DNA of 64,000 bases from Gemmatimonadaceae bacterium (lineage in GTDB: Bacteria > Gemmatimonadota > Gemmatimonadetes > Gemmatimonadales > Gemmatimonadaceae). The stretch covers positions 1 through 64,000 of the forward strand of contig JBBJNV010000001.1 in NCBI GenBank assembly GCA_037721215.1, written 5' to 3'. Position numbers and translations under genes: made by a program. The stretch's first letter is position 1. Each line of letters starts with the position of its first letter. Shown one piece after another: positions 2,807-21,800 of the stretch. The notes beneath the pieces were generated by a model. It was given only the letters and a program-made list of their open reading frames with translations, searched no databases and was not told where the DNA came from.

Positions 2807-2809
2807 GTA

Positions 2810-3697
2810 ATGAAACTCTTCTATTCGCCCGATTATGTGGCGGCTGCCGAATCCTTCGACACCATGCGGAAGTCAGGATGGATTGCCGAGTCGCTTCTCG
2901 CGGATCCGATCGAAGGGGTGGAGATCGTCGCGCCTCGATCGGTCACGTTCGATGAGGTTGCCGCGGTTCACGATCCTGCGTATGTGACCGCGGTGCAGAC
3001 CGGAGAGCCCCGCAGCCTGGCCGAGAGTCAGGGGTTCGCGTGGGATGCGGGGATGTGGCAGTCGGTGACGGCGTCAACCGGTGGTCTCGTTGCCGCAAGG
3101 CTTCAGGCGATGACGGATGGAGTTGCAGGGTCGCTGTCCGGCGGGCTTCATCATGCGCGATACGATCAAGGCAGCGGGTTCTGCACCTTCAACGGTTTGG
3201 CACTGGCGGCGAAGGCAGCTCTGGCAGCGGGCGCGGAGTCAGTTGTGATTCTCGATCTCGACGCGCACTGTGGCGGGGGCACTCACTCGCTGATCCGGGC
3301 CGATGCGCGGATCAGGCAGATCGACGTGTCGGTAAACCTGTTCGATCATTATCGGCCGGCAGGGTCGAGCACCCTCGACATGGTGGTTTCGGCCGGCGAA
3401 TATCTCGGCGCTATCGAGCGTCGGCTTTCGGACCTCGGCAGCAGTGGGTGGAAGCCGGGAATCTGCCTGTACAATTCCGGGATGGATCCGCATGAGCATT
3501 GCGGGATCGGTGGATTGTGGGGGATCGATGCGGCGATCTTGCGTGAGAGGGAGGAGCTGGTGTTCGGGTGGTTCACGTCGCGACGAATCCCCCTCGCATT
3601 TGCCATCGCAGGCGGTTACATCGGCGGGGCGATGAAGCAGGACGATCTCGTTGCGCTGCATCGTGTGAGCATCAGTGTGGCGTCGATGGCCGCGTAA
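2810..3697 (+). CDS. Histone-deacetylase-like amidohydrolase, paralogue 1
   Basis: A 295-residue member of the arginase/deacetylase superfamily. Visible features are GGLHHARYD (His114-His115, the charge-relay pair), ILDLDAHCGGGT (Asp151 and His153 as zinc ligands), NSGMDPHEH (Asp226, third ligand) and AGGYIGG (Tyr270, transition-state Tyr). Where HDACs have D-x-H-H-G-x-G-T, this protein has D-A-H-C-G-G-G-T, so one His is Cys. Family substrates are acetylated lysines, polyamines or small amides; which one applies is unknown. It is coupled to the TetR gene (3-nt gap). A paralogue lies at 5091-5993. Confidence 0.85.
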   Translation: MKLFYSPDYVAAAESFDTMRKSGWIAESLLADPIEGVEIVAPRSVTFDEVAAVHDPAYVTAVQTGEPRSLAESQGFAWDAGMWQSVTASTGGLVAARLQAMTDGVAGSLSGGLHHARYDQGSGFCTFNGLALAAKAALAAGAESVVILDLDAHCGGGTHSLIRADARIRQIDVSVNLFDHYRPAGSSTLDMVVSAGEYLGAIERRLSDLGSSGWKPGICLYNSGMDPHEHCGIGGLWGIDAAILREREELVFGWFTSRRIPLAFAIAGGYIGGAMKQDDLVALHRVSISVASMAA

Positions 3698-4877: not shown

Positions 4878-5022
4878 TCTCGAGCCCCTTGAAAGCCCAC
4901 GCATCGAGTGCGAGCTGCCACATCATTCCCAGACGCTCCGCGGGCGTCATGGCGCTGTAGTCCTCGTCGTCGCCTGAATCATGAAGGCGGCGGACACGAA
5001 CGGATGCCGCTGAATCAGCCAT
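4822..5022 (-). CDS. Small nucleotidyltransferase-associated protein
   Basis: A 66-residue protein whose pattern (RVRRLHD, then MTPAERLGMMWQLALDAWAFKG, then SRHLVRVQRRGR at the end) resembles the small conserved proteins often encoded just before DUF6036-like nucleotidyltransferases. It overlaps the next gene by 56 nt in another frame. That is a large overlap, but each frame carries its expected motif. Function unknown; it may be the partner of the nucleotidyltransferase. Confidence 0.5.
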   Translation of the reverse strand: MADSAASVRVRRLHDSGDDEDYSAMTPAERLGMMWQLALDAWAFKGLENAESQFSRHLVRVQRRGR

Positions 5023-5090
5023 CCCGCCATATACTCATTTCCCATGACGCATTCCGGAGGTTCCCGATTACCCCATTTACCGTCGAAGCA

Positions 5091-5993
5091 GTGATCTCTG
5101 TATACCACTCGCCGGCCTACACGCTTGCGGCGCACGAGTATTCGACTACTCGGAAGGCGGGATGGATTGCTGATTCGCTCAGGCGAAATCCGCTCAGTGG
5201 CGTCGCGCTAGTCGAGCCCGAGCCGCTGGCATTCGAGCAGGTGGCGGAAGTTCACGACCCAGCTTATGTGTGTGCGATTCAGACAGGTGAGCCACGAGAG
5301 GCTGCGGAATCTCAGGGGTTTGGCTGGGATCACGGCCTGTGGGACATGGTTCTCGCCTCGAATGGGGGAGTGGGTGCGGCGGTATTCGATGCATTGAAGA
5401 ACCGTGTGTCGGGATCGTTATCGAGTGGGCTGCATCACGCGCGTCGAAACGGCGGGGACGGGAATTGCACCTTCAATGGCCTGGTGATTGGGGCGAAGGC
5501 CGCAATCGCCGCGGGTGCGAAGTCGATTCTGATACTGGATCTCGACGCGCACTGTGGCGGAGGGACTCACTCGCTCATCGCCGGCGATTCGCGCACATGG
5601 CAGCTGGATGTGTCGGTCGCGTCGTTCGACAGCTATGAGCCAGGTGAGCGGACATCACTCGACATTGTCCAATCTGCGAGCAACTACCTCCCTACCATAG
5701 AAAGGCGGCTTGAGGAGCTCGAGGCGAACGGTCCGGTGTTCGATCTCTGTATCTACAATGCGGGGATGGACCCGCATGAGAATTGCCCGGTTGGTGGAAT
5801 GACGGGGATCGATGCAGAGATTCTCAGAGGGCGCGAACGCCTTGTATTCGGCTGGTGTGAGAGGCGGAGGATTCCTGTCGCCTTCGTGCTGGCCGGCGGA
5901 TATGTGGGCAGTTCACTGAGTGTCGAAGACCTCGTTGCGCTTCATCGGCTCACTATCGCGAGCGCAGCGAAGAGGCCGACTGCAGCAGATTAG
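5091..5993 (+). CDS. Histone-deacetylase-like amidohydrolase, paralogue 2
   Basis: A 300-residue paralogue of the 2810-3697 product. It has the same order of motifs: SGLHHARR, ILDLDAHCGGGT, YNAGMDPHEN and AGGYVGSS. The unusual Cys after the zinc-binding His is conserved in both copies, so it is probably functional. I place the start at GTG 5091 (VISVYHSPAYT), which aligns with MKLFYSPDYV in the first copy. GGAGG at 5056 is too far from it, and it sits 7 nt before an in-frame ATT, so a rare ATT start is possible. There is no regulator of its own directly upstream. Confidence 0.82.
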   Translation: MISVYHSPAYTLAAHEYSTTRKAGWIADSLRRNPLSGVALVEPEPLAFEQVAEVHDPAYVCAIQTGEPREAAESQGFGWDHGLWDMVLASNGGVGAAVFDALKNRVSGSLSSGLHHARRNGGDGNCTFNGLVIGAKAAIAAGAKSILILDLDAHCGGGTHSLIAGDSRTWQLDVSVASFDSYEPGERTSLDIVQSASNYLPTIERRLEELEANGPVFDLCIYNAGMDPHENCPVGGMTGIDAEILRGRERLVFGWCERRRIPVAFVLAGGYVGSSLSVEDLVALHRLTIASAAKRPTAAD

Positions 5994-6471: not shown

Positions 6472-6501
6472 GCAAGGGCTCTCTCGAAAGAGAGCCCTTG
6501 C
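6472..6501. promoter_or_regulatory. Perfect 13-bp hairpin/palindrome
   Basis: GCAAGGGCTCTCT (6472-6484) and its exact reverse complement (6489-6501) enclose a CGAA loop. There is no T-tract after it, so a Rho-independent terminator is not indicated. The right arm overlaps the -35 box of the promoter below, which makes it a good operator candidate for the accessory operon. Confidence 0.75.
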
Positions 6502-6526
6502 CTGATTGCCTCAAAACACTTATACT
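6498..6526 (+). promoter_or_regulatory. Sigma-70-like promoter, probably leaderless transcript
   Basis: TTGCCT (6498-6503), a 17-nt spacer and TATACT (6521-6526) form a near-consensus promoter. Initiation about 7 nt downstream would fall on the ATG at 6533, giving a leaderless mRNA; no ribosome-binding site is visible. Confidence 0.6.
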
Positions 6527-6532
6527 TGGTAT

Positions 6533-7720
6533 ATGGTCGATTCGGCAATTCGAGATACAATCCCACGGGTTCAACACATTCGGTACTTCCATGCGATCCT
6601 TGAGGGAATTGTGGAAGGTCAGAGCTTCGACGAGCTTCGTGCAACGCTCCGCCGAGTGGGAAGAGAGATCGGGAGGAGGACGACGGCCTCACGCGTTGAC
6701 GATGCCTACACTCTGTGGTCGCCGACTGCGGATGCCTTGGGTGAACTCATGCGACTTGAGCTCATAGAGCATAGGTCCGTTCCTTCGAAGCGAACTGCGG
6801 TAGATGCGCACCGCGAAACCATCTACCGACTCACCAATGCCGGGAGGGCGATCATTGAGGAAGTCCAAGGGGACGAGTCGAAATTTCGAGGTGCGGTGAC
6901 TCCAGTCCTCGTTCGTCAACATCCGCATCTCTCGTCGCTGTGCGAACTCCTAGAAGAAGGTCCGCTTCTGATCCCTGAATACACCGAGGAAGATCTAAAG
7001 AATTTCAGACAGTCGGGCCCCTCATGGACCGCAGCATTGGGTGCTGATGCCGCCAAACGGATCCGGGAAGGAATGAGGACAGCTGTGGTTGCGGATGAAC
7101 GCGCCGTTTCGCATGTCCGCGACTGGATCGCGAGACGTTTTCCCGCTGAGTCCTCCCCGACCCCCAGGGACATCCTCGACACAGTACTGGATGCATTGGT
7201 AGTAGTCGCACTCGAATCCAGAGGGCTGAGGTTTGATGCGACAACATTCAATATTCTTGTGAGCTGGGGGCGTCAGCTATTCATCATGAATGAAAGTCGG
7301 TACGTCCACAACGCTGATGGGCGGTCGGTCTGGAGCACGGCAGATATTTGCGACGATGGCGGCACCCTGAACGTCGTACGCCACAAGTTAAAGGATGTTG
7401 AGGTTGAAGTTCCTAGGGTATTGAGCGAGGTGTATCGTGACATCGCCAGCAGCCGGGCAACGTCTCTTGGAGGAAATGGCGTTCAGTTTCCGTACTTGCA
7501 GATCTATGAAGTGAGAGCGACGGCTGCTTTTCGTCTTCGCGTGAATGATCCGATCGTAGAGCGGATCATAGCTGACCTGGCCGACGGTACTCGGTCAGCT
7601 GGACTCCGGGTCGAGCTGGCGTTGGGAACAGGAAGGCAAGCGTCATCGGAAACTCCGTTTCGATTGGGTTCACGACGATTCAGCGTAATTCTCATCAAAC
7701 CTGAAGGGAGCCAACCTTGA
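6533..7720 (+). CDS. Unknown protein, winged-helix-like N-terminus; first gene of accessory block
   Basis: A 395-residue protein that I do not recognise. Residues 10-110 (helices around FHAILEGIVEG and ADALGELMRLELIEHR, then ETIYRLTNAGRAIIEE) look like a winged-helix DNA-binding or substrate-recognition domain. The rest is mixed alpha/beta with no catalytic signature. ATG 6533 is chosen over TTG 6506 because the latter lies inside the promoter. The last bases overlap the ATPase start as TTGA, so the two are coupled. In context it could be the specificity or sensor subunit, or the repressor of the 6472 palindrome. Confidence 0.75.
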   Translation: MVDSAIRDTIPRVQHIRYFHAILEGIVEGQSFDELRATLRRVGREIGRRTTASRVDDAYTLWSPTADALGELMRLELIEHRSVPSKRTAVDAHRETIYRLTNAGRAIIEEVQGDESKFRGAVTPVLVRQHPHLSSLCELLEEGPLLIPEYTEEDLKNFRQSGPSWTAALGADAAKRIREGMRTAVVADERAVSHVRDWIARRFPAESSPTPRDILDTVLDALVVVALESRGLRFDATTFNILVSWGRQLFIMNESRYVHNADGRSVWSTADICDDGGTLNVVRHKLKDVEVEVPRVLSEVYRDIASSRATSLGGNGVQFPYLQIYEVRATAAFRLRVNDPIVERIIADLADGTRSAGLRVELALGTGRQASSETPFRLGSRRFSVILIKPEGSQP

Positions 7721-9003
7721 GTAAATATCGACATATGCAGGAAGCTTGGGGCATCGAGGGCAATCCATTTCCGTCCGAAGCGATCCATCAGGGAAACGAG
7801 CCGTACAGCCCAGGCGTATTTGCCGATGAGCAAGAGCTGTTTTTTTCCCGCCTCATTTACGGCGCGGCCATGGATCGCCGTGGGTTCGGCTACCTCTGGT
7901 CAAAAGGCCCCTCCGGCGAAGACACAGGATTCGGTAAGACAACGCTATTGAAAAATGCGGCAAAAATGATAAATGCTGATTTTGGATCGGCGGTCCTGAT
8001 TTCAGCCGGCATGCGCGAGGATCGATTGTCGAAACACCCCGCGCTGGCCGCATACGCCTCACTGACTACGACCGACGTAACAGGTATTTACCCAATCTTG
8101 TTCGCAGCGGTCGAGTATCTCGCAGATCCAAAATACTCTCCAAGTGGAATTGCAGTTCTAGACACACTTCGTGGAAAAATTCGCGATGCCAACGGGCTTG
8201 CGGCTGGCGATGCAGAGGGGCTGAGGACCGTCCTTCAGGCGACACGCAGGAATCTTGGGGCGACGCTTCCGCCACTCCGAGCCGACGCACTCGATGCGTT
8301 TTGTGACGGAAGCGATAGCGATTTTGCGGCTTTCCTCGGAGAGGTCTCTCCGGCAAGCCGTGTTCGTAACGGCCTCGCGTACTTTGATTTTGCTTTTTCC
8401 TTGGCGGCGGCTGCTGGTATCAAGCACTTCTTTGTCCTCGTGGATCAGCTCGAGGACCTTGCAACCAATCAGACTGTTACCAAAGCAAAACGTAGCCGAG
8501 AAGTAGGTCGGCTTCGTGATGTAATAGCTGAGATGGTGCCCTTCGTGGGACGCGTTCATTTCGTTTTCACCTTCCACATTCGTGCATCCGACGCACTCAT
8601 TGACTTCTGGGTCCAGAACAGGCTTCCAAGCTTCGATCCGGAGGATCACAGCAATGAGGGATCGGTAGTCGTGCTTCGGGGAATTCAGGAGACGAGCCAA
8701 GTCCGTGACCTCTTGATGACCTATCTCGACGAGCTTCGCGAAGATGGCCCCACAGGTACAATTGCGCCTTTCACCGAGAGCGTGCTGCCGCTGTTGCTCG
8801 AACGTTCCGGCGGGCGTCCAGGGCTCTTACTCTCGTTCGCGCACAAGCTCTTTGACCGGGCCGCTGACCAAGAGATACCGCAGATCGACCGGCTGTTTGT
8901 CCAAAGCCTGCTTGGACTAGACGCGGCGACAACATTCACGAATCGGCGACGCGAGTCGGTCGAACCTAGGGATGCTCGTGCTGTCGATGATCTCCTTACC
9001 TAA
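7717..9003 (+). CDS. P-loop ATPase of accessory block
   Basis: A 428-residue protein. Walker A is the GFGKTT segment at residues 71-76, preceded by an atypically spaced GPSGEDT. Walker B is FFVLVDQLEDL (Asp243). VHFVFTFHIRASDAL (around 280-294) resembles sensor 1. A helical C-terminal domain follows, with ERSGGRPGLLLSFAHKL as in ORC/STAND-like ATPases. It starts at TTG 7717, with GGGAG about 7 nt upstream, overlapping the previous gene. Within the block it is probably the motor or switch that controls the nuclease encoded 8 nt downstream. Confidence 0.85.
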   Translation: MSKYRHMQEAWGIEGNPFPSEAIHQGNEPYSPGVFADEQELFFSRLIYGAAMDRRGFGYLWSKGPSGEDTGFGKTTLLKNAAKMINADFGSAVLISAGMREDRLSKHPALAAYASLTTTDVTGIYPILFAAVEYLADPKYSPSGIAVLDTLRGKIRDANGLAAGDAEGLRTVLQATRRNLGATLPPLRADALDAFCDGSDSDFAAFLGEVSPASRVRNGLAYFDFAFSLAAAAGIKHFFVLVDQLEDLATNQTVTKAKRSREVGRLRDVIAEMVPFVGRVHFVFTFHIRASDALIDFWVQNRLPSFDPEDHSNEGSVVVLRGIQETSQVRDLLMTYLDELREDGPTGTIAPFTESVLPLLLERSGGRPGLLLSFAHKLFDRAADQEIPQIDRLFVQSLLGLDAATTFTNRRRESVEPRDARAVDDLLT

Positions 9004-9011
9004 ACCGTAAG

Positions 9012-9812
9012 GTGAAATGGCTGGAGAGTTTTGTCGAAGACACCTACTTGCTGGCACGCTTTCACGTTCCTCAACTAGAGGGATGGTTGAGAGGCAGGAT
9101 TTGGGAAAAGTGGGCGGCACGGTCGCTGGGGGACCATACTTGGATCCACCAAGCTGCCGGTCAACTGCGATTATTCGGACACGGGTCTGCGTCGGGACTT
9201 CGGCACGAGATCGATGGCGCAGGCGCGCGCGATGGCGGGGTGATCTTGGTTGAAACGAAATCGTACAGCAGTTCGAGTCCTAGCAAGTCGGACATTTGCG
9301 TCTTTGACCGGAAAACGTTCGATCTCTATGTTGACCGATGCAGAAGAAAAGAGAAGGGTCCGCACTGGCGCATACTCGTCTCGTCTACCGCATTGGATGA
9401 AAGCATCCGAGCCTACTGTTACCTGTATGGAATCATTGCGGTGTATCCAAGCCACATACCTTTGCCGATGCTCTTGGCCTTGGCCGCAAAACCCTGTGCA
9501 GGCGAATTCTTCTCCGACACTCTTCTAAGTGAAATTGTACGGCTCGGCGAGCCCGCAGTTGCCTCGATGGAGAAACGGTACGTTCCCGAATCACATTTCT
9601 TAAAATTCGATCTGCGCGGTTTTGATGGTCGCGCGCTCAAAGACTTGCTTTGGCTTCAATCAACCATGTCGGAAGAGTTTCTTGATCTCCTTGATCGAGA
9701 ACGGCCGGGCTATTACGAGGTACGCGCCGAACTCCTTGTAGAAAAATTGGGGCTTTCAGTTAGCGCTGCGACATCAACGACCGGCGAACCGATAGCAATT
9801 GTTCGCCCATAA
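9012..9812 (+). CDS. PD-(D/E)XK-type nuclease
   Basis: A 266-residue protein. SGLRHEIDGAGARDGGVILVETKSY-type spacing gives Asp68 and Glu81-x-Lys83, the restriction-endonuclease catalytic core, with the usual hydrophobic strand before ExK. The N-terminal helices (VPQLEGWLRGRIWEKWAA) and the C-terminal region have no motif I recognise. GTG 9012 is the start; the ribosome-binding site is weak. It lies 8 nt after the ATPase gene, with the same strand and AT-richer composition, so the two probably act as a nuclease-ATPase pair. Confidence 0.82.
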   Translation: MKWLESFVEDTYLLARFHVPQLEGWLRGRIWEKWAARSLGDHTWIHQAAGQLRLFGHGSASGLRHEIDGAGARDGGVILVETKSYSSSSPSKSDICVFDRKTFDLYVDRCRRKEKGPHWRILVSSTALDESIRAYCYLYGIIAVYPSHIPLPMLLALAAKPCAGEFFSDTLLSEIVRLGEPAVASMEKRYVPESHFLKFDLRGFDGRALKDLLWLQSTMSEEFLDLLDRERPGYYEVRAELLVEKLGLSVSAATSTTGEPIAIVRP

Positions 9813-9851
9813 CTTCTCACGCTGCCGTGCGTGTACTTCAGAGGTAACCTG

Positions 9852-10406
9852 ATGGGTAGCCGCAAACGATACAGAATCTCTAACTTACAGATCACTCTTG
9901 CAAACGCCGGCCGCGCTTCATGGCAGTTTGCCGGGAGGACTGTTCACGGTCACGACCATTTGTACGAGGTGCGCGATCTGAATTTTCCATCCCTGAATAA
10001 TTGGACCGTTGCTGTGCGAGTGCCTAAACGGGGAATCGGGTCCGTTGTGGTGCAGCCCAGGCAAGTCCCAGGAAAGAGAACTTGGGCGGGTCTAGATCGT
10101 CGTTCCCTGGTATTTGTGCGTGCAACTCGGTTGCCATACAGAGATCGACGTTACTGCAAGATCAGCCTCGCTGACCCGAGCGGCGTCCGCACGAAGCACA
10201 CTCTAAGCCGTGGTGCGCGTTCTCACTTCCCTCACTGGCTGAAGCAGTATCAATATCGGATTCGCTTGAAGCAGACCGTTGCCCTGACTAAGGGCAATGA
10301 TGGAAATGCCCTTGTAGCGGTGGTTTGGCCGGAAGACTACCCCACAATGATTCGCCTGTACTTCGCTCTTAAGGTATGGGTTCTGGAGGAGCGATTTCAG
10401 ATATGA
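9852..10406 (+). CDS. Unknown basic protein of accessory block
   Basis: A 184-residue, strongly basic protein (MGSRKRYRISNLQ, many Arg/Lys/Tyr) with predicted beta-rich content and no recognisable motif. ATG 9852 is chosen because GAGG lies 7 nt upstream; an upstream GTG at 9831 has no such site. It follows the nuclease by 39 nt on the same strand and is probably the last gene of that operon. The charge suggests nucleic-acid binding, which is inference only. Confidence 0.7.
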   Translation: MGSRKRYRISNLQITLANAGRASWQFAGRTVHGHDHLYEVRDLNFPSLNNWTVAVRVPKRGIGSVVVQPRQVPGKRTWAGLDRRSLVFVRATRLPYRDRRYCKISLADPSGVRTKHTLSRGARSHFPHWLKQYQYRIRLKQTVALTKGNDGNALVAVVWPEDYPTMIRLYFALKVWVLEERFQI

Positions 10407-10941
10407 GCCCTTGGATGGTCATGCCTGAGGAGGCACACGGTCGCGAAGCCAAGCGAGGTGACGATCGCAGCGCTTCGGCTAACGGAGTTTAGTGTCAGCA
10501 GTAACTCGGATATTCGAATGAGCAGGCCGATTCCTGATCAGGCGTTGGATCACACAAAGTAAGAATGCGAGAAGTTGTTGCCCTCCAACAGCAGCAGGCT
10601 GGACAAGACTTACTCGAGCTTTATTCGCCGCGCTCAGGCATTTGTGGATCAACCTTAGGCTATGTCCTTGACACCGCACTTTGAGCGAGACCGAGCTGCG
10701 GAGGGGCCGTTCCCTTCTATCTCTTCGGCAACATGGTGGTAGCGGCGGCATGATTGACCGGGCTCTCAGCGTCGTGGTATCGCTCGTGTGAAAGGCGTTG
10801 AGTGGACCCTAACGGCTGCGGCTTCAGGAAGTCCCACGGAGAGCGAGGCATCTCACAGGCGCTGCCTTGCCCCCGTCAGAGACTTCGGCAGCGAAATAGA
10901 TGATGTGCGCGTTGATTAACTATCGACATGACAACACAATT
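10407..10941. other. 535-bp stretch with no supported gene
   Basis: No frame here has coding character that I trust. The 90-codon minus frame at 10479-10751 lacks a ribosome-binding site and any motif. The region may carry the methyltransferase promoter (AT-rich near 10913-10941) and decayed material. Confidence 0.5.
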
Positions 10942-12144
10942 ATGCGATTTTGCCGGGTGAGAAAAACCGACCGACCTCTCGAATTGCCGCTGGATGAACC
11001 ATTGAGCCACCTGGCCACCATAAGGCTCGCCGCAAGGGACGAGCGTCGGGTCTCGGGCCTCACGCACTCATTTTACCGATATCCAGCTCGGTTTTCGCCT
11101 CAGTTTGCAAGTGCCGCGATAACAGCTTTCTCAAAACCAGGCGACATTGTCCTCGATCCGTTTATGGGCGGTGGTACCTCAATTGTTGAGGCTTGCCGCC
11201 TTGGACGGATTGCTGTCGGTAGCGATATCAACGCTCTCGCTGTGTTCATTTGCCGAGTAAAAACAACGCCCCTCAAGGCTTCGCAAATTTTTGCATTACA
11301 GTGTTGGGCCGACGAAGTAGTGCCACAGCTCCGATACGCCGATAGTCTCGCGGGTCAATCGACGAGCAAGGATCATGAGACACGCAACCTGCACCTGCCG
11401 AACGCCCGGCCAATAAGGAAGCTCACTGCGCTCGCATTGGACACGCTCCCTCAACTCCCTGATGGGCCCACCCGACGATTTGGGCGTTGCGCACTTTTAC
11501 GGGCAGGCCAATGGGCGCTTAACGGAAGGAAGCTGCCGGTTGCCAGCGAGGCATTCCGTCTCAAACTGCAATTCTTCGTTCATGAGATGCTACAAGGTCT
11601 TGTTGAATACCAGTCCTGCCTTCCCCCCGGATCCAGAAGACCGAGACTCTCAGTCTGTTCAGCCGATCGAATCGCGACCGAGTTCCCCTTCCAAGATGGT
11701 CGGAAAGCCGACATGGTAGTTACAAGTCCGCCATACCCCGGCATCCATATCCTTTACCATCGCTGGCAAGTGGATGGTCGCAAAGAAACCAACGCCCCAT
11801 ATTGGATTTCCGCGACGCGAGATGGGGAAGGCTCGTCGTACTACAACATGGGAGACCGGCGTAACAGAAACTCCGATGATTACTTCGAGAATCTCAGCAA
11901 GGGACTACTGTCGATTCGTGCTGCTGTTCGCGACGGCGGCGTCTTCGCTCAGATGGTTGCCTTCGCTCGGCCACGATATGCCTTGCCTCGTTACCTGGAA
12001 GCCATGCGGCACGCGGGTTTTATGGAATTCCCACGCTTGCGCCGCCGTATGTGGCGTTCCGTTCCCAGCCGCGCCTGGCACGCATCCGTCAAAGGGCAGA
12101 CGGCGTCCGCACGGGAGGTTGTCCTTTTACACACCGCTGTCTAA
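10942..12144 (+). CDS. DNA methyltransferase, probably N4-cytosine type
   Basis: A 400-residue SAM-dependent amino-methyltransferase. Motif I is VLDPFMGGGTS (residues 71-80) and motif IV is VVTSPPYPG (261-268). The Ser-Pro-Pro-Tyr form is typical of N4-cytosine enzymes, though some N6-adenine enzymes share it. About 180 residues between them could hold target recognition. HSFYRYPARFSPQF upstream of motif I resembles the H-x-Y-P-A-K/R-F-x-P block of a known methylase subgroup. ATG 10942 is chosen for its AT-rich, motif-proximal position. Its stop overlaps the convergent GHKL gene stop by 3 nt. Confidence 0.88.
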   Translation: MRFCRVRKTDRPLELPLDEPLSHLATIRLAARDERRVSGLTHSFYRYPARFSPQFASAAITAFSKPGDIVLDPFMGGGTSIVEACRLGRIAVGSDINALAVFICRVKTTPLKASQIFALQCWADEVVPQLRYADSLAGQSTSKDHETRNLHLPNARPIRKLTALALDTLPQLPDGPTRRFGRCALLRAGQWALNGRKLPVASEAFRLKLQFFVHEMLQGLVEYQSCLPPGSRRPRLSVCSADRIATEFPFQDGRKADMVVTSPPYPGIHILYHRWQVDGRKETNAPYWISATRDGEGSSYYNMGDRRNRNSDDYFENLSKGLLSIRAAVRDGGVFAQMVAFARPRYALPRYLEAMRHAGFMEFPRLRRRMWRSVPSRAWHASVKGQTASAREVVLLHTAV

Positions 12145-14714
12145 TCCTCATCTCCTTGCATCGCAAGGCCAGTTACCTGCTCGTCGGTAAGAGCGCCGAG
12201 GTTATCAATCATCGGCACGATGAACGGGCCTAGGGCCCTCGTGACGGATCGGACTTCATCAACGATTGAAGGTGCGTCGTCTGAACGTCCGTTGACGGTT
12301 GCTGGTGATTTTGCTTTTGTTCTGCTGTCATGTATTAGCGCAAGCCCAATCAAAACATTGCCGTACGTAAACTTCGCTTCTGCTAGACGCACCGTGTCAG
12401 GTTTTCCTTTCATGTCATTTCGAAGAAAGATGTTGTCGACGTTCACGTAGAAGGTGAATGCATGGTCTTTCCCGTCGGTCGTAGCCTCCTCAACTACGTG
12501 GCACCCATCTTTCTCGTCGAACTTATACCTTTTCCAGAATTCGTCATCCCTGTGGACGCGAATGATATTCGGCATTGCAATGCCGCCGCTTGAGAGCGGG
12601 CCCTTGGAGTCTTTCCCTGTGCCCGATTCCGAACCGGCGCCATTTCCCGAGCCCTTCCGGCTGGTACGAGTTCCGCTTCCGTTGCCTCCCTTGGTCGCGG
12701 CGGTTAGACGAAGCCGAGCGACGTTTACAAATGGTTCGATCAACGTGTCGTCCTCGACAGTGCATGCGAGCGTGACATTACCGCCAATGGAAAGCTGATC
12801 TGGAGGTAGGTTGATACTCCAATTAGCGACACCATTGTGCAACGTGATGTTGTGGTCGAGCTCAATTCCCTCGAGAGTTCCATCCAAAACCTCGACATAG
12901 TATTTGCCTCGTACGTCCTCGCGGGAGAAATAATCATTCTCCACATCGGTGTCGAAGCGGATACGGCAACGTCTCCCTATCTCAGCGTTTCGCGCGAGTT
13001 CGAACGCATTTGGTTTTTCATGGAATCTGAAGAATGTTGGATGTGGGCGCCCTTCAAACGTTCCACTGCCATTGTCCGCACCTCCACCGCCCGCGCCATT
13101 GCCCGTACCTGGCTGCTGCCTCTCTGGTCTGTTGAGGCGTTGGCCACTGAGAAACAGCGATGCCAGGCTGGGAGAGGTTTTCAGAATAGAACTAAGTACC
13201 TCTTCTAGCGGTTTTGACTCGGAAAGACGATCTGAGATCTCGCTAGAGCGCCTGCGCTCCTGAAGCTCACGCAGTCCTGGGTGGCGGCCAAGTGCATCTT
13301 CCAATTCCTCTTCGACTGCTTTGCGCAGCTCACCATTACTCAACCGATCGCGCGAATTCATGAAAAGGTCCTCTCTCGCACCGACAGAGAGCGCGGAGCA
13401 ATCCACAACGACGAGGAGGGACTCCGCGATCCGCTGCATTTTTACTCTGCGGCGTTGAAAAAACGTTCGTGGGAGCCACCCATGAGTCTGGCCATTCATC
13501 GTGAAAATGATTCCTTCACTCGCTGCATATGTCTTCGCCCTGTCATCTTTGAAAGCGAAGATTTGGGCGACCATTTCTTCCCCTCGTACTTTGATCTGAA
13601 CGGAAGTCGGGTAGCCCTCCTCTAGATTTCCCCCTCTACCCGTTTGGAGTCTCGACAGAAGTCCAACCATTGAGTTTTCGAAACTGCGCTCGACAACGCC
13701 GCGGTACGGCCGGCATTCGTGAACTCTGACCGGCAGTGCGATCCCCGGTAGCAAAAGTTCTAGCCGAAAGAGAAGTCCATCTTTCATCAGCGCCTGGCTC
13801 GCGAAACCCTTCATGTCGTATTCGTAAAGCTTTATTGCGGAACCGAAGCTCACATCGCGCTTGTAAGGTTCATTGTGCTCTGGAAACAATGGAAGGGCGT
13901 TCGCCGTGAAGGAGAGGATGTCACCATTGTTGGGCTTCGCGCCGCTTCCCACGGGAGCGAGAAATCGATACACGGAGCTGCGAACCTGTCCCACACCAAT
14001 TGGCGGGCGTTCCCGCCGTACCACTGTGACGCTCCACTGCTCAGCGCCTTTGTCGGTTTCTTTACCTTGTTTGACGATCTCCGGGTCACGCTTTGTAATG
14101 AGAAGCTGAATGTTGTCTGTTCCGCAAAACTTCAAGGCCCCGGTACCTCCCATATTGAATTTGCCTTGGACGAATGGGATCCGGAGCTTGTTCTTACGAT
14201 TGATTGACAGGAACGTGTCGGGCACGCGCAACGGTGTCTGTCCTTCTCCTTGGTCGGCGATGGTGATACTTGCTTTATTACCCCCGGCGCGGGTCTCTCC
14301 GGTCACCGCAATCGTGATGAACTTGGCTTGAGTTAGTTGACGCTCCTGCGGCCAGTCCTTCAGGTGCCCGCCCTGTCCGGCAGGTTTGTTTCCCGGTTCA
14401 AAAAAGGCGGCGACGGCGTCGGTTATGCTCTGAGGCGCATCTGCAGATTCTGGATCTATTCCGCGACGTCTGCACTCGGCTAAGAGGCGCGCATCTACGG
14501 AGTTGACTACTTTCTCAACAAGAGCAGCTTCTGGCCGGCTCTGTTGGTTTCCAATAGTCGAATAATTCCCATCCGTGTCTCCGTAGAGCCGCCACGACTT
14601 TTGGTCATTCCAGAAACCGGAGTCGGTGAGAATCTTTCTTACTTGAGCCTCGGTATCGGCTTCGAGAAGCGAGAGTGCGAATGTCTTGATCTCTTCGTTC
14701 TTCATCTTAGTCAT
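12141..14714 (-). CDS. Large GHKL (Hsp90/MutL/MORC-like) ATPase
   Basis: An 857-residue protein with a Bergerat-fold ATPase at the N-terminus. The N box is LVEKVVNSVDA (Glu67, Asn71), G1 is IADQGEGQTP (Asp154) and G2 is GKFNMGGTG (184-192). A middle transducer-like region follows. After a Gly-rich linker near 555-570 comes a beta-rich, Ig-like segment (to about 690), then a second Gly/Ser linker and a C-terminal domain of about 120 residues. The start overlaps the upstream gene as ATGA. GHKL ATPases linked to methyltransferases and nucleases are known in bacterial restriction loci (MutL/MORC-related); this architecture is not one I can name. Confidence 0.85.
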   Translation of the reverse strand: MTKMKNEEIKTFALSLLEADTEAQVRKILTDSGFWNDQKSWRLYGDTDGNYSTIGNQQSRPEAALVEKVVNSVDARLLAECRRRGIDPESADAPQSITDAVAAFFEPGNKPAGQGGHLKDWPQERQLTQAKFITIAVTGETRAGGNKASITIADQGEGQTPLRVPDTFLSINRKNKLRIPFVQGKFNMGGTGALKFCGTDNIQLLITKRDPEIVKQGKETDKGAEQWSVTVVRRERPPIGVGQVRSSVYRFLAPVGSGAKPNNGDILSFTANALPLFPEHNEPYKRDVSFGSAIKLYEYDMKGFASQALMKDGLLFRLELLLPGIALPVRVHECRPYRGVVERSFENSMVGLLSRLQTGRGGNLEEGYPTSVQIKVRGEEMVAQIFAFKDDRAKTYAASEGIIFTMNGQTHGWLPRTFFQRRRVKMQRIAESLLVVVDCSALSVGAREDLFMNSRDRLSNGELRKAVEEELEDALGRHPGLRELQERRRSSEISDRLSESKPLEEVLSSILKTSPSLASLFLSGQRLNRPERQQPGTGNGAGGGGADNGSGTFEGRPHPTFFRFHEKPNAFELARNAEIGRRCRIRFDTDVENDYFSREDVRGKYYVEVLDGTLEGIELDHNITLHNGVANWSINLPPDQLSIGGNVTLACTVEDDTLIEPFVNVARLRLTAATKGGNGSGTRTSRKGSGNGAGSESGTGKDSKGPLSSGGIAMPNIIRVHRDDEFWKRYKFDEKDGCHVVEEATTDGKDHAFTFYVNVDNIFLRNDMKGKPDTVRLAEAKFTYGNVLIGLALIHDSRTKAKSPATVNGRSDDAPSIVDEVRSVTRALGPFIVPMIDNLGALTDEQVTGLAMQGDED

Positions 14715-15361
14715 CTCAACTTCTCCGGGGTTGCAATCCACGTTTTTTCTATTGCTGAGTCGACTACATCGGTTTGCTTGACCGTGTAGCCATCGTTTCC
14801 GTTCCGTTCGACAACTCCCAGTTGGCGTAGCCATGCTATGACCACGTAAACCTGGTAGGAGGGTACATCGTTTCCATCACTGTCTGTTATCGGGAGCAGC
14901 GTTTCCATGGTGAAGCTGTTCACATGACTACGAAGAGCATAACAAACCGCCGTTATCACACTCCTCGGCGCCTTGTGCTCGTAAGCACGACTTTCCTTCT
15001 TGGACCATCCGATCTTGACCAGCCGATCACCCTCTCTCTCAAAACGTGGATACGTCGTTCCGTTTTGTCGGATGGGCGAGCCGCTCGAGTGATGAAGACT
15101 CAGTGGGGCTTTGTCACCGCGGTCAAAGGTCGGACGCTCGTCCGCGACCTCGGTGAACGTGCGGACGGGGCCTGAACGCTGTTCTTTAAGCATCTGGTCG
15201 TGCCGAAGCGTTGCCAAAGATTCGGCTAGTTTTGCAAGAGCTGCTACATCTGAATACGACTGCGCCCCAAGGCAGTCTTGAATCAGAGATCTCAGCTGAT
15301 CTTCGGCCTTCTGGAGCACCGCGGAAGCGTTGCTCGCGGCATCTGTAATTGGAGAGTACAT
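14711..15361 (-). CDS. Small winged-helix-like partner of the GHKL ATPase
   Basis: A 216-residue protein. The N-terminal 65 residues are helical and coiled-coil-like (LQKAEDQLRSLIQDCLGA). The C-terminal 80 residues (AVCYALRSHVNSFTMETLLPI, then YQVYVVIAWLRQLGVVERNG, then YTV) read like a winged helix. The middle is unusual, carrying YPRFEREGDRLVKIGWSKKESRAYEHKAP. ATGA coupling to the GHKL gene indicates a two-gene operon. It may be a DNA-binding adaptor; no family recognised. Confidence 0.75.
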   Translation of the reverse strand: MYSPITDAASNASAVLQKAEDQLRSLIQDCLGAQSYSDVAALAKLAESLATLRHDQMLKEQRSGPVRTFTEVADERPTFDRGDKAPLSLHHSSGSPIRQNGTTYPRFEREGDRLVKIGWSKKESRAYEHKAPRSVITAVCYALRSHVNSFTMETLLPITDSDGNDVPSYQVYVVIAWLRQLGVVERNGNDGYTVKQTDVVDSAIEKTWIATPEKLR

Positions 15362-15435: not shown

Positions 15436-15650
15436 TACTTACATATCACGATTCTGTCCGGCCCTGCCAGAGATAGGGATTGAACGAATAAGGGCCGCAT
15501 GGAGGGATCGCAGCGCTCTCTCATTCTAAGGCAGCAAACTCAACATAAGTCGCGGTGGATAACGAAGGCGGGGCAGGTCACAAAGAGATGGCCACTGTCA
15601 GACGTCACTTCCAAATTACGGAGGGAAACAGACGTATACTAAGGACTTAC

Positions 15651-18600
15651 ATGCTCGAACCAGCTTCGGATTTGATCCCTTCACATCCTGTCCCCGGCCT
15701 GACCCTCAGCGGCGTCCGGGATACCGATGCCGCGACGGAATGGCTTATCCGAGAGCTGGGAATTCTCCCGCTCGGAGCATTTGACCACCCTGTAGTCCTG
15801 GCCCATCACCCGGCACTCCGCCGCGCACTCACGCTCGGCATAGCACGCGCGACCGGCTGCGCTGCTTCGATTCGCTTCGTATCTCCTACCGGTTGGGTGG
15901 ACGAAATTGCCGAACTCGCAGGTGCCGACGGGGAATGGCGTCCGTCTGTAATGGCATGGAGGCTGACGGAGGGACTAACTGCGAGCTCGGAGAATCTCCC
16001 GCACTCGGTACGGCACATCGTCGATGGAGGAGACACGCTTGCGCTACTCGACTTCGCGAACGCCGTCGCGATGCGGTTTCGGGCGTACGTCCTGCATCGG
16101 CCGGATTTGTTGTTGCGATGGGAGGCGTCGGATATTCCGGCCGCTGACGCAAGCGAGGGCGAACGATGGCAGCATACACTCTGGCGCTCACTCGTCGCAG
16201 GCTCCTCATCGCAATCACCGGCTCAGATCATCGCCGAGGTGCGAGCTGGACGATTCCGCTGCCCGGAGAATGTTACTCCGGTAATTCTTGCCGTCGCGGA
16301 TCCAACTGTGCCGCCGACGGTGTTCGAGGTGTTGCGCGCGATCAGCAAAGAGCGCGCACTGCACTGGTGCGTCGTCGCGTTTGGTGGCACGTCGGAGCGC
16401 GCGATCATCTCGCCACGACTACGTTCGGCCACGTCGAGACTGGAACCACTCGGTCTCGCTCCAATGGCTGAACGCGACGGTGCGCAAACAACGCTGCTCG
16501 GCCGAATCCAACGCCTCCTCGACGAAGGCGACCGGAATCCCGAGCAAAAATTCACCCTGGACGACACGCTCACTCTCCACGCCTGCCACTCGCCGCTGCG
16601 GGAGATCGAAACGCTACGTGAGCGACTCATTTCCGCGATGGAATCGGATGGGCAGCTGCGGCCTCATGATGCCACGCTCTACGTCACTTCCCTCGAACGG
16701 TACCTGCCGGCCATCGATGCAGTCTTCGGCCTGGATGAACCGGGCATACCGCGACTGCCTTACGAAGTCGCGGGCCGTCCGTTCCGCGATCGCTCGCCCG
16801 TTGTATTCGCGGTCCTGAGGATTCTCGAAGCAAGTGAAGGCCGGGCAACGCTGGAGGAGATCAGCTCACTGCTCCGCCTCACACCGATTGCGGATGCAGC
16901 TGGCTTCAGCGAGCTCGAGACGGCAACGGTTCTTTCTCTCGCACAGCAGGCGGGGATCGTCTGGGGAATCGACGGTGCCGATCGCAAAGAGCGGTTCGAA
17001 TTGGCGCCGATAGAATCGGGCACATGGCGCCACGGCATCGACCGCCTCGTACTCGGCATTGCAATGGGTTGCACGGACTCTCCCGTCGGAGACGTCCTTC
17101 CCGTTTCCGGCGAATCGGCAGGGAATGCGGACATTATCGGGCGCATTGCGGGCTGGACGGAGGAACTCTTTCGGCTCTTTACCGATTTGCGTACGCCGCG
17201 ACCTGCCGGAGAATGGAATGAAGTTCTGGAACGCGCGATCACGACGTTCGTACAGGCCAGCGGGTCGGAGGACTACGAGGCGTTGCGCACACTTCGGAAA
17301 GCGATGGACGATCTGCTGGGCGGAATCGCGAACGTGTCGAAAGACACTCCGGTCGCCATGCCCGCCATCCGCACGCTGCTCGAACAGGCATTCGAGGACA
17401 TGGCCGGGGAAGTCGGCCATCTGCGCGGTGGAATTCGTGTCTGCCGGCTGGAGCCGGGTGCGATTATTCCGGCCAAGGTGGTCCTGATCGCCGGCGCCGA
17501 CGATGCACTGCACCCGGGCGGAGGAGGGAATCCTTCATGGGATCTTCTTTCCGCATCGCCTCAGGACGGCGATCCAGATCGCCGGGCAGACATGCTCGAC
17601 GCGTTCCGTCAGGCGATCGGCAGCGCGCGGTCGCGCGCGCACATTGCCTGGACGGGATTCACGACGCTCCGTCACGAGCCGCGCGCGGCATCGATCGCGG
17701 TTTCAGAGTTGCGTGACATCGCCCAGCGCATCCTCCCTGACGAAGCCCACAAATCCCTCGTGCGCAACGAGCCGGCACATCCGTTCTCGGCGAGCCATTT
17801 TCTGACATCGCCATCATCAGGGAGAATTCAAAGCGCTGCGCAAGGATGGGGAAACGCGGCACGCCTCATCCAGACTCGCGGCGCGGAACATCAGCCATTC
17901 GCCGACGAATCGCTCGACCCACCGGAATTACACTCACGAGTCATCTCCCTCGAGGCACTCTCCTCCTGCGTGAAAGACCCGTCCCTCTTCTTCTGCCGTC
18001 GCATCCTCAATCTCGAGATGCACGACAACGACGAGGTCGAGGAATGCGAGCCGCAGGCCGTCAATCCACCGACCACAGAAAAGGGCGTCAGCAACGATTT
18101 GCGCACCATATCGTGGCGACTCGAAGCGGCTCAGCGCCGGGGTGACATCCGAGATCGTGACCAGATTGCGGAGTGGCTTCAGCACCAGCCGGAGATGCCA
18201 TACGGTGAGGAAGGCCGCGTACTCGCAGGAGCCGTGGCAGAAGCCTGGTGGCCCCGGCTCGACGAGCTCCGGGGAATAACGTGGCTTCCGCCGCGGCCGC
18301 TTGAGCTCAAAGTAGGGGAGTTCACGATTGTGGGCCGGCTCGACCGCCTGACCGCCGACGCCCGCGTCATCGAATGTCTGTACAAAATCCGCGCACACTC
18401 GGCGCTGCCGAACTGGGTTCCTCATCTGGTGATGAACGTGATGGCGGATCGCGGAGAGGGATTGCCGCGCGAGACGTCGATGCTCGGTGAAACTCCATGG
18501 AAGATTGCGACTGTCGATGATGCAGAGGCGGAGCTTGTCAAACTTTGCACGTTCTACGAGCAGGCGTGCATCGCGCCGCAGCCGCTGTTTCGCAGGTCCG

Positions 18601-18875
18601 GATGCGCGTGGCTCGAGGCACTTGGCGGGCGCCCGGCGGCTGAGGTCGATTCTGGCACTTCGGAAAAGGCGTGGGCCAAAGCGCGCGAGGCCTGGGAGCC
18701 AAGGGCCGTTGTGCCCGGAATCAAGACTTATAAGATGGAAAGCGAGCAGCCGTCATCTGTGCTCTGCTGGCCGAACTGCGATCTCCTGGATCCCGACTTT
18801 GCGGTGTCGTTCGCACGTTCCACGGAGCAAGTGCTGCTCCCCTTCATGCGCGCCTGCATCGGAGATGACGCATGA
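15651..18875 (+). CDS. recC: Exodeoxyribonuclease V, RecC subunit
   Basis: A 1074-residue protein of RecC length. The clearest family block is LHACHSPLREIETLRERLISAM, followed by a phage-helicase-like fold with FGLDEPGIPRLPYEV and VVFAVLRILEASEGR. RecC lacks a working Walker A, and none is seen. The C-terminal third (residues about 800-1074) carries the nuclease-like pin domain. ATG 15651 is used because AAGGA lies about 6 nt upstream; a longer GTG frame from 15555 lacks family similarity. It overlaps recB by 4 nt. In the RecBCD complex it recognises Chi. Confidence 0.85.
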   Translation: MLEPASDLIPSHPVPGLTLSGVRDTDAATEWLIRELGILPLGAFDHPVVLAHHPALRRALTLGIARATGCAASIRFVSPTGWVDEIAELAGADGEWRPSVMAWRLTEGLTASSENLPHSVRHIVDGGDTLALLDFANAVAMRFRAYVLHRPDLLLRWEASDIPAADASEGERWQHTLWRSLVAGSSSQSPAQIIAEVRAGRFRCPENVTPVILAVADPTVPPTVFEVLRAISKERALHWCVVAFGGTSERAIISPRLRSATSRLEPLGLAPMAERDGAQTTLLGRIQRLLDEGDRNPEQKFTLDDTLTLHACHSPLREIETLRERLISAMESDGQLRPHDATLYVTSLERYLPAIDAVFGLDEPGIPRLPYEVAGRPFRDRSPVVFAVLRILEASEGRATLEEISSLLRLTPIADAAGFSELETATVLSLAQQAGIVWGIDGADRKERFELAPIESGTWRHGIDRLVLGIAMGCTDSPVGDVLPVSGESAGNADIIGRIAGWTEELFRLFTDLRTPRPAGEWNEVLERAITTFVQASGSEDYEALRTLRKAMDDLLGGIANVSKDTPVAMPAIRTLLEQAFEDMAGEVGHLRGGIRVCRLEPGAIIPAKVVLIAGADDALHPGGGGNPSWDLLSASPQDGDPDRRADMLDAFRQAIGSARSRAHIAWTGFTTLRHEPRAASIAVSELRDIAQRILPDEAHKSLVRNEPAHPFSASHFLTSPSSGRIQSAAQGWGNAARLIQTRGAEHQPFADESLDPPELHSRVISLEALSSCVKDPSLFFCRRILNLEMHDNDEVEECEPQAVNPPTTEKGVSNDLRTISWRLEAAQRRGDIRDRDQIAEWLQHQPEMPYGEEGRVLAGAVAEAWWPRLDELRGITWLPPRPLELKVGEFTIVGRLDRLTADARVIECLYKIRAHSALPNWVPHLVMNVMADRGEGLPRETSMLGETPWKIATVDDAEAELVKLCTFYEQACIAPQPLFRRSGCAWLEALGGRPAAEVDSGTSEKAWAKAREAWEPRAVVPGIKTYKMESEQPSSVLCWPNCDLLDPDFAVSFARSTEQVLLPFMRACIGDDA

Positions 18876-21800
18876 GCGTTCCAGAGACTTTCATTCCTGG
18901 AGACGGGCCGAATCTCGTCGAGGCATCCGCTGGTACCGGCAAGACGACATGGATGGTGCGCACCGCAGTGCGTCTCCTGTTGCAGGATCAGGGCATGCCC
19001 GCAGTGAACAAGGTCGAGCGACTCCTCGCGGTCACGTTCACGCGAGCCGCGACCGCCGAGCTGAAGGAGCGCATCCGCGCGGAGCTTCACAACGTGAAGC
19101 GGGTGAGAGATGGCGAGCCCGTAGGGGAACAATGTGACTGGATGAAGCCGATGCTCGACGCTGGCGGTACGGCGATGCTGGTTCGGCTCGAAAGCGCGCT
19201 CGCATCGCTGGATCGCCTCGCGGTCACAACGATTCACGGTTTCTGCAAGGGCGCGCTGGAGGAGTTCGCACTCGAGTGCGGCGTTCCGGTGGGCTTGAAG
19301 TTTATCGAGCACGATCGCTTATATCGTGACGAGGCACTGGCTGATGAATGGCGGGCGCTCACCTGGGAGATGGGTCCTGTGAGTCAGTTCGTCATGAGCG
19401 AACGGATGTGCGGGGAATCCTCCAGGCGCTCGCAATGGTCGCCCTTCGAACTCGAGAAAGCAGCGCGGGTTGTGCGCCAGGGAATCGGGGCGGCGCGGCC
19501 GGATCGTATCGTTCGTGAGGCCGAGCTTGCTTCCGTGCAGGAGACGCTGCACGGAGTCCTCGAGCATTGGGATGAGGGCCGGTTGCGCGATTTCCATGAT
19601 AAGGTCAAATGGAATAAGGCCGGTTTCACCCTCGAGCAAATGAATGCTCTATGTGTCGCGATGAGTGCCCTGGGCGCTGGCAAGAAAGCCCTCGTCAGCG
19701 ATATCGCGCGGTGGGCGAGATCGAGTGTCGATGCGGTTGCCAGCAAATCGAGCAAGGTCAACAAGGATCTGATTCCGAACGAGAAATTTCTCGACGCCTG
19801 CGAGGTGGTAAAGGCGGCGTATGACCGCGCAGCCTCACTGATCTGGCAGGATGCCGTGCTCTCTGTCGCCGAGCGAATGGAACGGGCGATGGAGCGCGAT
19901 CGTGTTGCGGGCTTCGACGAGATGATCGGCTACCTCCAGCGCGCTGTCACCGACGAGCAGAATGGCAAGCGTCTGCGCGAAGTCCTCGAGGGCCGCTACG
20001 ATGCAGTCCTCATCGACGAGTTTCAGGATACTGACTGGGCACAGTGGACGATCTTCTCGGGTACTTTCGGCATCAAGCCACTCGTGCTCGTCGGAGACCC
20101 GAAGCAGTCGATTTATGGATTCCGTGGCGCTGACATCACTGCATATCGCGCGGCGCATGCTGGGGCGATGGAGCGCGGAAAAGATCGCGTATTCTCGCTC
20201 GATACGAATTACCGGTCGGACCAGCAACTCGTCGCGGCAACCGAGATCCTGTTCTCACAGGCGAGCGAGCCGTTTGCGGTTGACCGGAGCGTCTTGAACT
20301 TCGAGCCCGTAAGAGCTGCGCGCGACGAGCCGTCACTGGTTGACGATGCGCGACGCCCGATGGTGCTCGTGGACCTCGGGAAGGATCGTGCGCCGGATCA
20401 GGAAAGGAAGGTGACGCGTTTCATTGCTCGGGAAGTCGCCCGGTTGTTGCGTGATCCTTCCGTCAAATACCGTGATCCGAAGACTCGCAAACTGCGCCGG
20501 CTCAAGCCGTCGGATATCGCGATCCTCGTTTCAGCGAATCGTCAAGCTGTTCCGCTTCTCGAGGAGCTTCATTCATATGGAGTGGCTGCTGTGTCGGGCG
20601 CCACGGGTGATATCGCCGAGTCGGCGATGTGGCAGGATGTATTGCTGGTTATCGGCGCGATAGAGGATCCGGCCAATCCGCGAGTGGTCCGTCGCGCGCT
20701 GTCGACGTCGATCGGGGGGTGGTCGGCGAGCCGGCTCCACGCGCTAGAGTCGGATGGCGATGAATGGAGACGACTGGTGGAGCGGCTCGCCGAGGCGCGT
20801 CGTGACTGGATGTCATTCGGGGTGCTTGCCGCGCTGATGCGTCTCACTAACGACTGGGATGCCCGCAAGACGCTCGCGGCGTATCCGGATGGTGAGAGGC
20901 GTCTCACTGATTTCCGGCACGTCGTTACGCTGCTTCAGGAGGCGGAGCGGGAGGGGCATCGGAATCCGACGATGCTGATTTCGTGGGCTAACAGGTTCGC
21001 TGCCGAGAGCGATCGCGACGCGGAATATCGCCAGCAGCACCTCGAGTCGGATGCGGACGCCGTGACCGTCAGCACTGTTCACGTTGCGAAAGGGCTCGAG
21101 TGGCCGGTGGTGTTCTGCGCCTACCTTTGGAAAGCGCCATTCAAGCGAGAGCTGACTCCTCACATAGCGCGGTTTCCTGACGGTACGCGCCGGATTGTGT
21201 TCGAAGACGCAGTTCCCGGAGAGATCGAGGGCGATACACCGATCGCTGAGCACCTGCGGTTGGCATATGTTGCGCTTACGCGGGCGCGGAGCCGTACCTA
21301 CGTCGTCTGGGCAGAGAGCCATCGCGAAGGCAGCGGTGCCATCCACCATCTTTTGCAGGGTGTCAGCAACGGTACTGGCTCACCTCCAGCTGTGCTCGCT
21401 GCCAGGCATCCTGAGCTGATTACGTGGATTGCAGAGGGCGAAGCGTCGAGTTTCACTGTCCCCAATGACAACGGAGATGCTGGCATCTCGAACGGAGATC
21501 TGGTTGCACGCAAAGTGACAGTCGGATCCGGGCAGACACGCAGCTGGACGGTGTCGTCGTACTCCCGGTTTACCAGAGGCCTCAAGCTTTCCGTCGATGC
21601 CACGGAAGTGGGGCCAGTGGATGAAGCGGAGGCAGCGGTTGCAGCGGAGGCTGCCGTGGCAGCGGAGGCAGCGGAGGCAGCGGTGGACGGCGCTGCTCCG
21701 CGTGCCGATCAACTGCCGGGTGGAGCGCACACGGGTAACGCGCTTCATGAGCTATTTGAGCGGTTCATCTTCCCCGATATCGCCAATCCAGTCGCCGTCA

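What the first reader, a model, noticed from the sequence alone, without database searches (positions are those of the whole stretch)
6472..15361. Uncatalogued defence-like locus: ATPase-nuclease operon, N4-type methyltransferase and GHKL ATPase
Seen: seven genes in an AT-richer block. Four are plus-strand (unknown winged-helix-like protein, P-loop ATPase, PD-(D/E)XK nuclease, basic protein), followed by a SPPY methyltransferase, and a convergent coupled pair (216-residue protein and 857-residue GHKL ATPase). Known: bacterial restriction loci can combine methylases, nucleases and MutL/MORC-like GHKL ATPases, while DISARM, BREX, Dnd, Zorya and Wadjet each have hallmark genes absent here. Inference: one modification-dependent anti-phage system in which methylation marks self and two ATPases license the nuclease. 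recBCD next door fits a DNA-defence setting.
Basis: partly seen in the sequence, partly recalled or inferred. Interest (0 to 1): 0.85.

Follow-up and report, generated by a model that had tools for sequence, protein, structure and literature searches.

The report
Two separate DNA-defence-like gene modules
An AT-richer island in a bacterial chromosome holds two rare, uncatalogued gene sets that look like anti-invader DNA defences, one a helper-ATPase with a DNA-cutting enzyme and the other a DNA methyltransferase with a MutL/MORC-like clamp ATPase, and elsewhere in nature they are found apart rather than as one seven-gene system.

Summary
Seven ORFs lie at the stated places (TTG/ATG 6506/6533 to 15361), all at GC 53-56% against 60-64% in the flanking genes. 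The only profile hits are the methyltransferase (Pfam PF01555, PADLOC MTase_II) and one marginal P-loop hit in the ATPase. The inference of one seven-gene system is not supported by homologues. The block splits into two modules.

(A) wHTH-like protein + P-loop ATPase + PD-(D/E)XK-type nuclease. This trio recurs complete in Azospirillum brasilense (plasmid p1) and inside a conjugative element of Mesorhizobium, and as a fragment in a Rokubacteria MAG. There is no methyltransferase or GHKL gene within about 10 kb. It was found in no other genome of about 1,100 sampled.

(B) methyltransferase + 857-aa GHKL ATPase, usually tail-to-tail, with a small wHTH partner in two loci. The pair recurs in seven other loci, none with the trio. 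The GHKL family also sits in a DISARM locus and beside Vsr/Dcm, so it behaves like the paraMORC GHKL ATPases of restriction-modification loci.

One Mesorhizobium genome carries both modules on different contigs, so joint action is not excluded. Likely mechanisms are ATPase-licensed cleavage (A) and modification plus clamp surveillance (B). Both are inferred; nothing biochemical is shown.

The parts
6472..6501 (.). Perfect 13-bp inverted repeat with a 4-nt loop just upstream of the first gene; possible operator or transcription boundary
   Evidence: Read directly; folds at -25 kcal/mol, z=-4.2, none of 200 shuffles as stable; unique in the window; no T-run on either side, so not a canonical terminator
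6506..7720 (+). Module A, gene 1: winged-helix-like protein (TTG start 6506, or ATG 6533)
   Evidence: Translation; co-linear homologues in Azospirillum and Mesorhizobium, hhalign probability 95%, E=3.7e-8 over 357 columns; low-confidence model with a helix-helix-helix-wing N-terminus at pLDDT about 60-70; only weak PadR/MarR/RTP fold hits
7717..9003 (+). Module A, gene 2: P-loop ATPase, probably ORC/CDC6-STAND-like AAA+
   Evidence: Translation; 27% identity over about 400 aa to Azospirillum (1e-23) and Mesorhizobium; invariant GFGK and VDQhE; Pfam ORC-CDC6-like only at E=0.0057 in the Mesorhizobium homologue, below cut-off
9012..9812 (+). Module A, gene 3: predicted PD-(D/E)XK nuclease
   Evidence: Translation; homologues in the same operon in Azospirillum (6e-15) and Mesorhizobium (6e-14); E32, D68, E81-x-K83 invariant
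9831..10406 (+). Orphan basic protein after module A (possible start ATG 9852); no homologue found
   Evidence: Translation; codon-position GC like its neighbours; no family hit and not present at the relatives' loci
10900..12144 (+). Module B, gene 1: N4mC/N6mA-type DNA methyltransferase
   Evidence: Pfam PF01555 E=2.4e-13; family with invariant DPxxGGxT and TSPPYPGxHxLYHRW; 34-53% identical copies next to GHKL genes in six loci and 45% next to a split GHKL gene in L049
12141..14714 (-). Module B, gene 2: 857-aa GHKL ATPase, paraMORC-like
   Evidence: Translation; GHKL motifs; homologue P0015 passes the Pfam HATPase_c_3 cut-off; 32-57% identity to GHKL proteins paired with the methyltransferase
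14711..15361 (-). Module B, gene 3: 216-aa protein with a C-terminal winged-helix-like domain, coupled to the GHKL gene
   Evidence: Translation; 4-nt overlap with the GHKL gene; one homologue (36%) in the same position in L020

Best explanation
The block is a small acquired defence island made of two functionally separate modules. Module A (genes 1-3) is a nuclease system: the wHTH protein and the ORC/CDC6-like ATPase assemble on invading or conjugating DNA, and ATP-driven assembly licenses the PD-(D/E)XK nuclease to cut it. Module B (genes 5-7) is a restriction-modification-like system: the methyltransferase marks host DNA, and the GHKL ATPase, an ATP-gated dimer clamp as in MutL/MORC, with the wHTH protein in some loci, surveys DNA for missing marks and then blocks it or recruits a nuclease that the module does not itself encode. 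Shown: gene content, motifs, separate recurrence of the two modules, mobile and defence contexts. Inferred: anti-invader function, order of events, methylation type, clamp behaviour. The gene-4 product has no assigned role.
For: A: complete trio in Azospirillum (L003) and inside a Mesorhizobium conjugative region between relaxase and TraG genes (L011), a fragment in a Rokubacteria MAG (L012); invariant catalytic-type residues; wHTH homology. B: methyltransferase-GHKL pair, tail-to-tail in L027, L020, L022, L050, L042 and L049 (split GHKL gene), co-directional in L023; no trio near any of them nor in the two genomes, two virus records and four plasmids searched whole. The GHKL family also lies in a DISARM locus (DrmA, DrmB, DrmC, DrmMII), next to Vsr and Dcm (L026), and next to HEF_HK-type kinases in L005/L006, matching the published paraMORC context (PMC2292703, PMC8011034). 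Predicted ORC/CDC6 + REase + wHTH conflict systems are described in PMC10853773. All seven genes share one atypical composition.
Against: Trio loci are few (two complete), so the separation claim rests on small numbers. Both modules occur in one Mesorhizobium genome although each is rare (GHKL profile in 2 of 345 other phylum genomes; trio ATPase in none of 394). The ORC/CDC6 assignment is weak: structure models were poor (mean pLDDT 40) and gave no significant fold match. No nuclease was found consistently with module B, so its restriction step is a guess. No phage or plasmid challenge data exist.
Confidence: 0.6

Rival explanations
1. One seven-gene modification-dependent system: the methyltransferase marks self, and the GHKL and P-loop ATPases together license the trio's nuclease.
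For: Contiguity and shared composition; module B lacks a nuclease of its own and the trio supplies one; both modules coexist in one Mesorhizobium genome on different contigs although each is rare.
Against: Seven methyltransferase-GHKL loci without the trio and two complete trio loci without methyltransferase or GHKL nearby; trio ATPase absent from the two genomes, two virus records and four plasmids that carry the GHKL gene and were searched whole; the halves are separated by 490 nt and by gene 4.
Confidence: 0.15
2. Module B is not restriction but epigenetic or regulatory: an orphan-type methyltransferase plus a MORC-like compactor that silences foreign DNA without cutting it.
For: No endonuclease recurs with the pair; no HKD, PD-(D/E)XK or HNH extension was recognised in the GHKL C-terminus (and alignments); eukaryotic MORCs compact and silence DNA (literature).
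Against: Family members sit in a DISARM locus and beside Vsr and Dcm, where cutting is the established or expected outcome.
Confidence: 0.2
3. Module A is a mobile-element maintenance or replication function (ORC/CDC6-like ATPase, wHTH, nuclease on plasmids and conjugative elements) rather than a defence.
For: Found on an Azospirillum replicon and inside a conjugative region in Mesorhizobium; ORC/CDC6-like ATPases also serve replication and transposition (PMC10853773).
Against: In the window it lies in a chromosomal block next to a methyltransferase-GHKL pair with no transfer, replication or transposase gene; in Mesorhizobium it looks like cargo between tra genes.
Confidence: 0.2
4. The block is a decayed or neutral remnant with no present function.
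For: Not found in any of about 100 relatives.
Against: All seven frames are intact with conserved catalytic residues and tight gene overlaps.
Confidence: 0.05

Closest known systems
paraMORC GHKL ATPases in restriction-modification loci (Iyer, Abhiman and Aravind 2008, PMC2292703)
   Same: N-terminal GHKL motifs, long conserved C-terminal extension, sporadic distribution, association with DNA methyltransferases and, in relatives, with Vsr, Dcm and DISARM helicase loci.
   Different: The MORC-specific S5 motif is absent; the usual SF2 helicase and nuclease are missing from the pair; the partner is an SPPY-type methyltransferase in a mostly tail-to-tail layout that I did not find described.
Predicted ORC/CDC6 ATPase + REase + wHTH conflict systems (PMC10853773; related to SspBC and to BrxD in PMC12839542)
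   Same: AAA+/P-loop ATPase of apparent ORC/CDC6-STAND type, an active-looking PD-(D/E)XK nuclease and a wHTH protein in one operon on mobile DNA.
   Different: No HerA/FtsK, ASCH or inactive REase; sequence families match no Pfam, NCBIfam or PADLOC model above cut-off; gene order varies between loci.
DISARM
   Same: A member of the same GHKL family lies between DrmMII and DrmA genes in Halarchaeum.
   Different: DrmA, DrmB and DrmC are absent from the window.
Type II restriction-modification
   Same: A DNA methyltransferase paired with a DNA-acting partner.
   Different: No cognate endonuclease recurs with the pair.

Membership tests
paraMORC-type GHKL ATPase | Intact GHKL ATP-binding motifs | tested here: met
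   ExxxNxxDA, DxGEGQ, FVQGxFNMGG in the window protein; Pfam HATPase_c_3 above cut-off in homologue P0015
paraMORC-type GHKL ATPase | C-terminal S5-fold domain | not testable with these tools
paraMORC-type GHKL ATPase | Genomic association with methyltransferases or restriction genes | tested here: met
   Methyltransferase pair in seven other loci; DISARM and Vsr/Dcm contexts
MORC proper | GhXhhpXXRhl motif in the S5 domain | tested here: not met
   Pattern absent from all 11 family members scanned
Type II restriction-modification | DNA methyltransferase with SAM and catalytic motifs | tested here: met
   DPFMGGGT and TSPPY
Type II restriction-modification | Cognate endonuclease encoded with it | tested here: not met
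   No nuclease recurs with the pair in the other loci
DISARM, BREX, Dnd, Zorya, Wadjet and other PADLOC systems | Hallmark genes | tested here: not met
   Apart from methyltransferase models the only hit is VakA at E=0.024 over 31 residues of the ATPase
ORC/CDC6 + REase + wHTH systems | ORC/CDC6-clade AAA+ ATPase | tested here: inconclusive
   GFGK[ST] and VDQhE; Pfam ORC-CDC6-like E=0.0057 in one homologue, below cut-off; AlphaFold model too poor
ORC/CDC6 + REase + wHTH systems | Active PD-(D/E)XK nuclease | tested here: met
   E32, D68, E81-x-K83 invariant in three homologues; motif level only
ORC/CDC6 + REase + wHTH systems | wHTH DNA-recognition protein | tested here: inconclusive
   wHTH-like N-terminus at pLDDT about 60-70; weak wHTH fold hits, E at least 0.15

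The most novel reading that the evidence does not exclude
The two modules are partners that can be encoded apart: the methyltransferase and GHKL clamp provide self/non-self discrimination, and the unlinked or adjacent ATPase-wHTH-nuclease trio is its effector, a split two-locus modification-dependent defence. The joint presence of two rare modules in one Mesorhizobium genome is the only hint.
Probability: 0.1. Interest if true: 0.8.

Novelty: new variant of a known kind. Interest (0 to 1): 0.5.

Why it matters
It defines two compact, testable candidate defence modules that are absent from the PADLOC copy searched. One links a methyltransferase directly to a MORC/MutL-like clamp ATPase, which would let the long-standing question of what prokaryotic MORC relatives do be tested in a two-gene bacterial system. 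It also shows why contiguity alone should not be read as one system.

Tried and rejected
AlphaFold models of the ATPase and the wHTH protein from two-sequence alignments were poor (pLDDT about 40), and Foldseek gave nothing significant. PDB sequence searches with four profiles gave only chance-level hits, plus a weak topoisomerase VI-B match for the GHKL motif region. Searches for the trio in virus contigs gave only a fragment (L013). tblastn of genes 1 and 3 in plasmids found nothing. Flanking direct repeats were sought and none convincing was found. I considered calling gene 7 the nuclease of module B and rejected it because it has no nuclease motif.

Full report
Observation. The block at 6472-15361 holds the seven genes described. 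Every gene has GC 0.53-0.56, against 0.60-0.64 in the flanking HDAC-like and recCBD genes. The genes are tightly arranged: 4-nt overlaps between genes 1 and 2, between 6 and 7, and between the ends of 5 and 6. A gap of about 490 nt separates gene 4 from the methyltransferase. Immediately upstream of gene 1 lies a perfect 13-bp inverted repeat, 6472-6501, which is stable and unique in the window. PADLOC, Pfam, NCBIfam and PHROGs recognise the methyltransferase; the only other hit is a marginal PADLOC VakA match to a short P-loop stretch of the ATPase.

Rarity. No relative of the ATPase or of the GHKL protein was found in 98 genus, family and order relatives. The ATPase was absent from 393 other class genomes, 394 other phylum genomes (overlapping samples) and 345 members of the Mesorhizobium family. 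A scan of 84,980 species genomes with narrow back-translated patterns gave two loci. The GHKL profile matched 2 of 345 other phylum genomes.

Module A. In Azospirillum brasilense plasmid p1 the ATPase homologue (27% identity over 92% of the query) is followed by a wHTH-type gene and a nuclease homologue, then a UvrD-like helicase. In Mesorhizobium sp. LNHC252B00 the same three genes lie between relaxase and TraG genes, without a helicase. A Rokubacteria contig end and a short virus contig hold fragments. The window's gene 1 aligns with the wHTH-type proteins from end to end (hhalign probability 95%, E=3.7e-8, 357 columns), so three components are conserved while gene order is not. The ATPase has an invariant GFGK[ST] loop and VDQhE. 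The nuclease has invariant E32, D68 and E81-x-K83. An ORC/CDC6-like assignment is suggested by motif shape and a sub-threshold Pfam match (E=0.0057) and was not settled by structure prediction.

Module B. The GHKL protein belongs to a family with members on plasmids of Bacteroidota, Alphaproteobacteria, Bacilli and haloarchaea. In Halarchaeum it lies inside a DISARM locus with DrmA, DrmB, DrmC and DrmMII; in L026 it follows Vsr and Dcm genes. In Ensifer and Devosia it neighbours sensor-kinase/regulator pairs of the kind described as HEF_HK systems related to paraMORCs (PMC8011034). A sub-family pairs with the window-type methyltransferase: tail-to-tail in L027 (GHKL 57%, methyltransferase 53%), L020, L022, L050, L042 and L049 (where the GHKL gene is split), and co-directional in L023. 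The small wHTH gene 7 recurs upstream of the GHKL gene in L020 only. No endonuclease recurs with the pair. The MORC-specific motif is absent from all 11 members scanned, so the protein is paraMORC-like and not a MORC.

One system or two? No methyltransferase-GHKL locus contains the trio, and no complete trio locus contains the methyltransferase or GHKL gene within about 10 kb. Whole-record searches of two genomes, two virus contigs and four plasmids with the GHKL gene found no trio ATPase. One observation cuts the other way: the Mesorhizobium genome with the trio on contig C13 also has a methyltransferase-GHKL pair on contig C36. Given how rare both are, this is worth following up, but it is a single case, the genes are unlinked, and I could not measure the base rate in rhizobia.

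Mechanism. For module A the best reading is recognition of invading DNA by the wHTH protein and the ATPase, with ATP-dependent licensing of the nuclease. For module B it is methylation of self DNA plus surveillance by an ATP-gated GHKL clamp that blocks or hands over unmodified DNA. Motifs and gene associations are shown; every functional step is inferred from named families (PMC2292703, PMC10853773, PMC12839542).

Verdict. The gene content and its defence-like, uncatalogued nature are confirmed. The single-system interpretation is not supported by gene neighbourhoods. The most defensible label is a chromosomal defence island with two new variants of known kinds: an ATPase-wHTH-nuclease trio and a methyltransferase-paraMORC pair.

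Noticed in passing
L042 (G447:C36:2517-6027) and L011 (G447:C13): One Mesorhizobium genome carries both the trio (C13, conjugative region) and a tail-to-tail methyltransferase-GHKL pair (C36, near an integrase gene), on different contigs.
   Followed up: partly
L010 9076-11808: A distant member of the window's GHKL family lies between DrmMII and DrmA genes in a haloarchaeal DISARM locus, an extra gene of that locus that no PADLOC model recognises.
   Followed up: partly
window 6472-6501: Perfect 13-bp palindrome with a CGAA loop directly upstream of the first gene, unique in the window, without a T-run; possible operator.
   Followed up: partly
window 15555-24312: recCBD next to the block: no recC relative was found in 18 other genomes of the genus, so recBCD may itself be acquired or lost elsewhere; its GC is normal for the window.
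   Followed up: partly
window 2801-3685 and 4908-5990: Two histone-deacetylase-like genes, 58% identical, lie close together upstream of the block; a third relative is about 130 kb along the contig.
   Followed up: no
L049 11196-14117: The GHKL gene paired with the methyltransferase is split into two adjacent frames (360 and 609 aa); a sequencing error or a real two-subunit form.
   Followed up: partly
L003 13420-16158: A UvrD-like helicase gene (weak GajB-type matches) directly follows the Azospirillum trio; not present at the other trio loci.
   Followed up: partly
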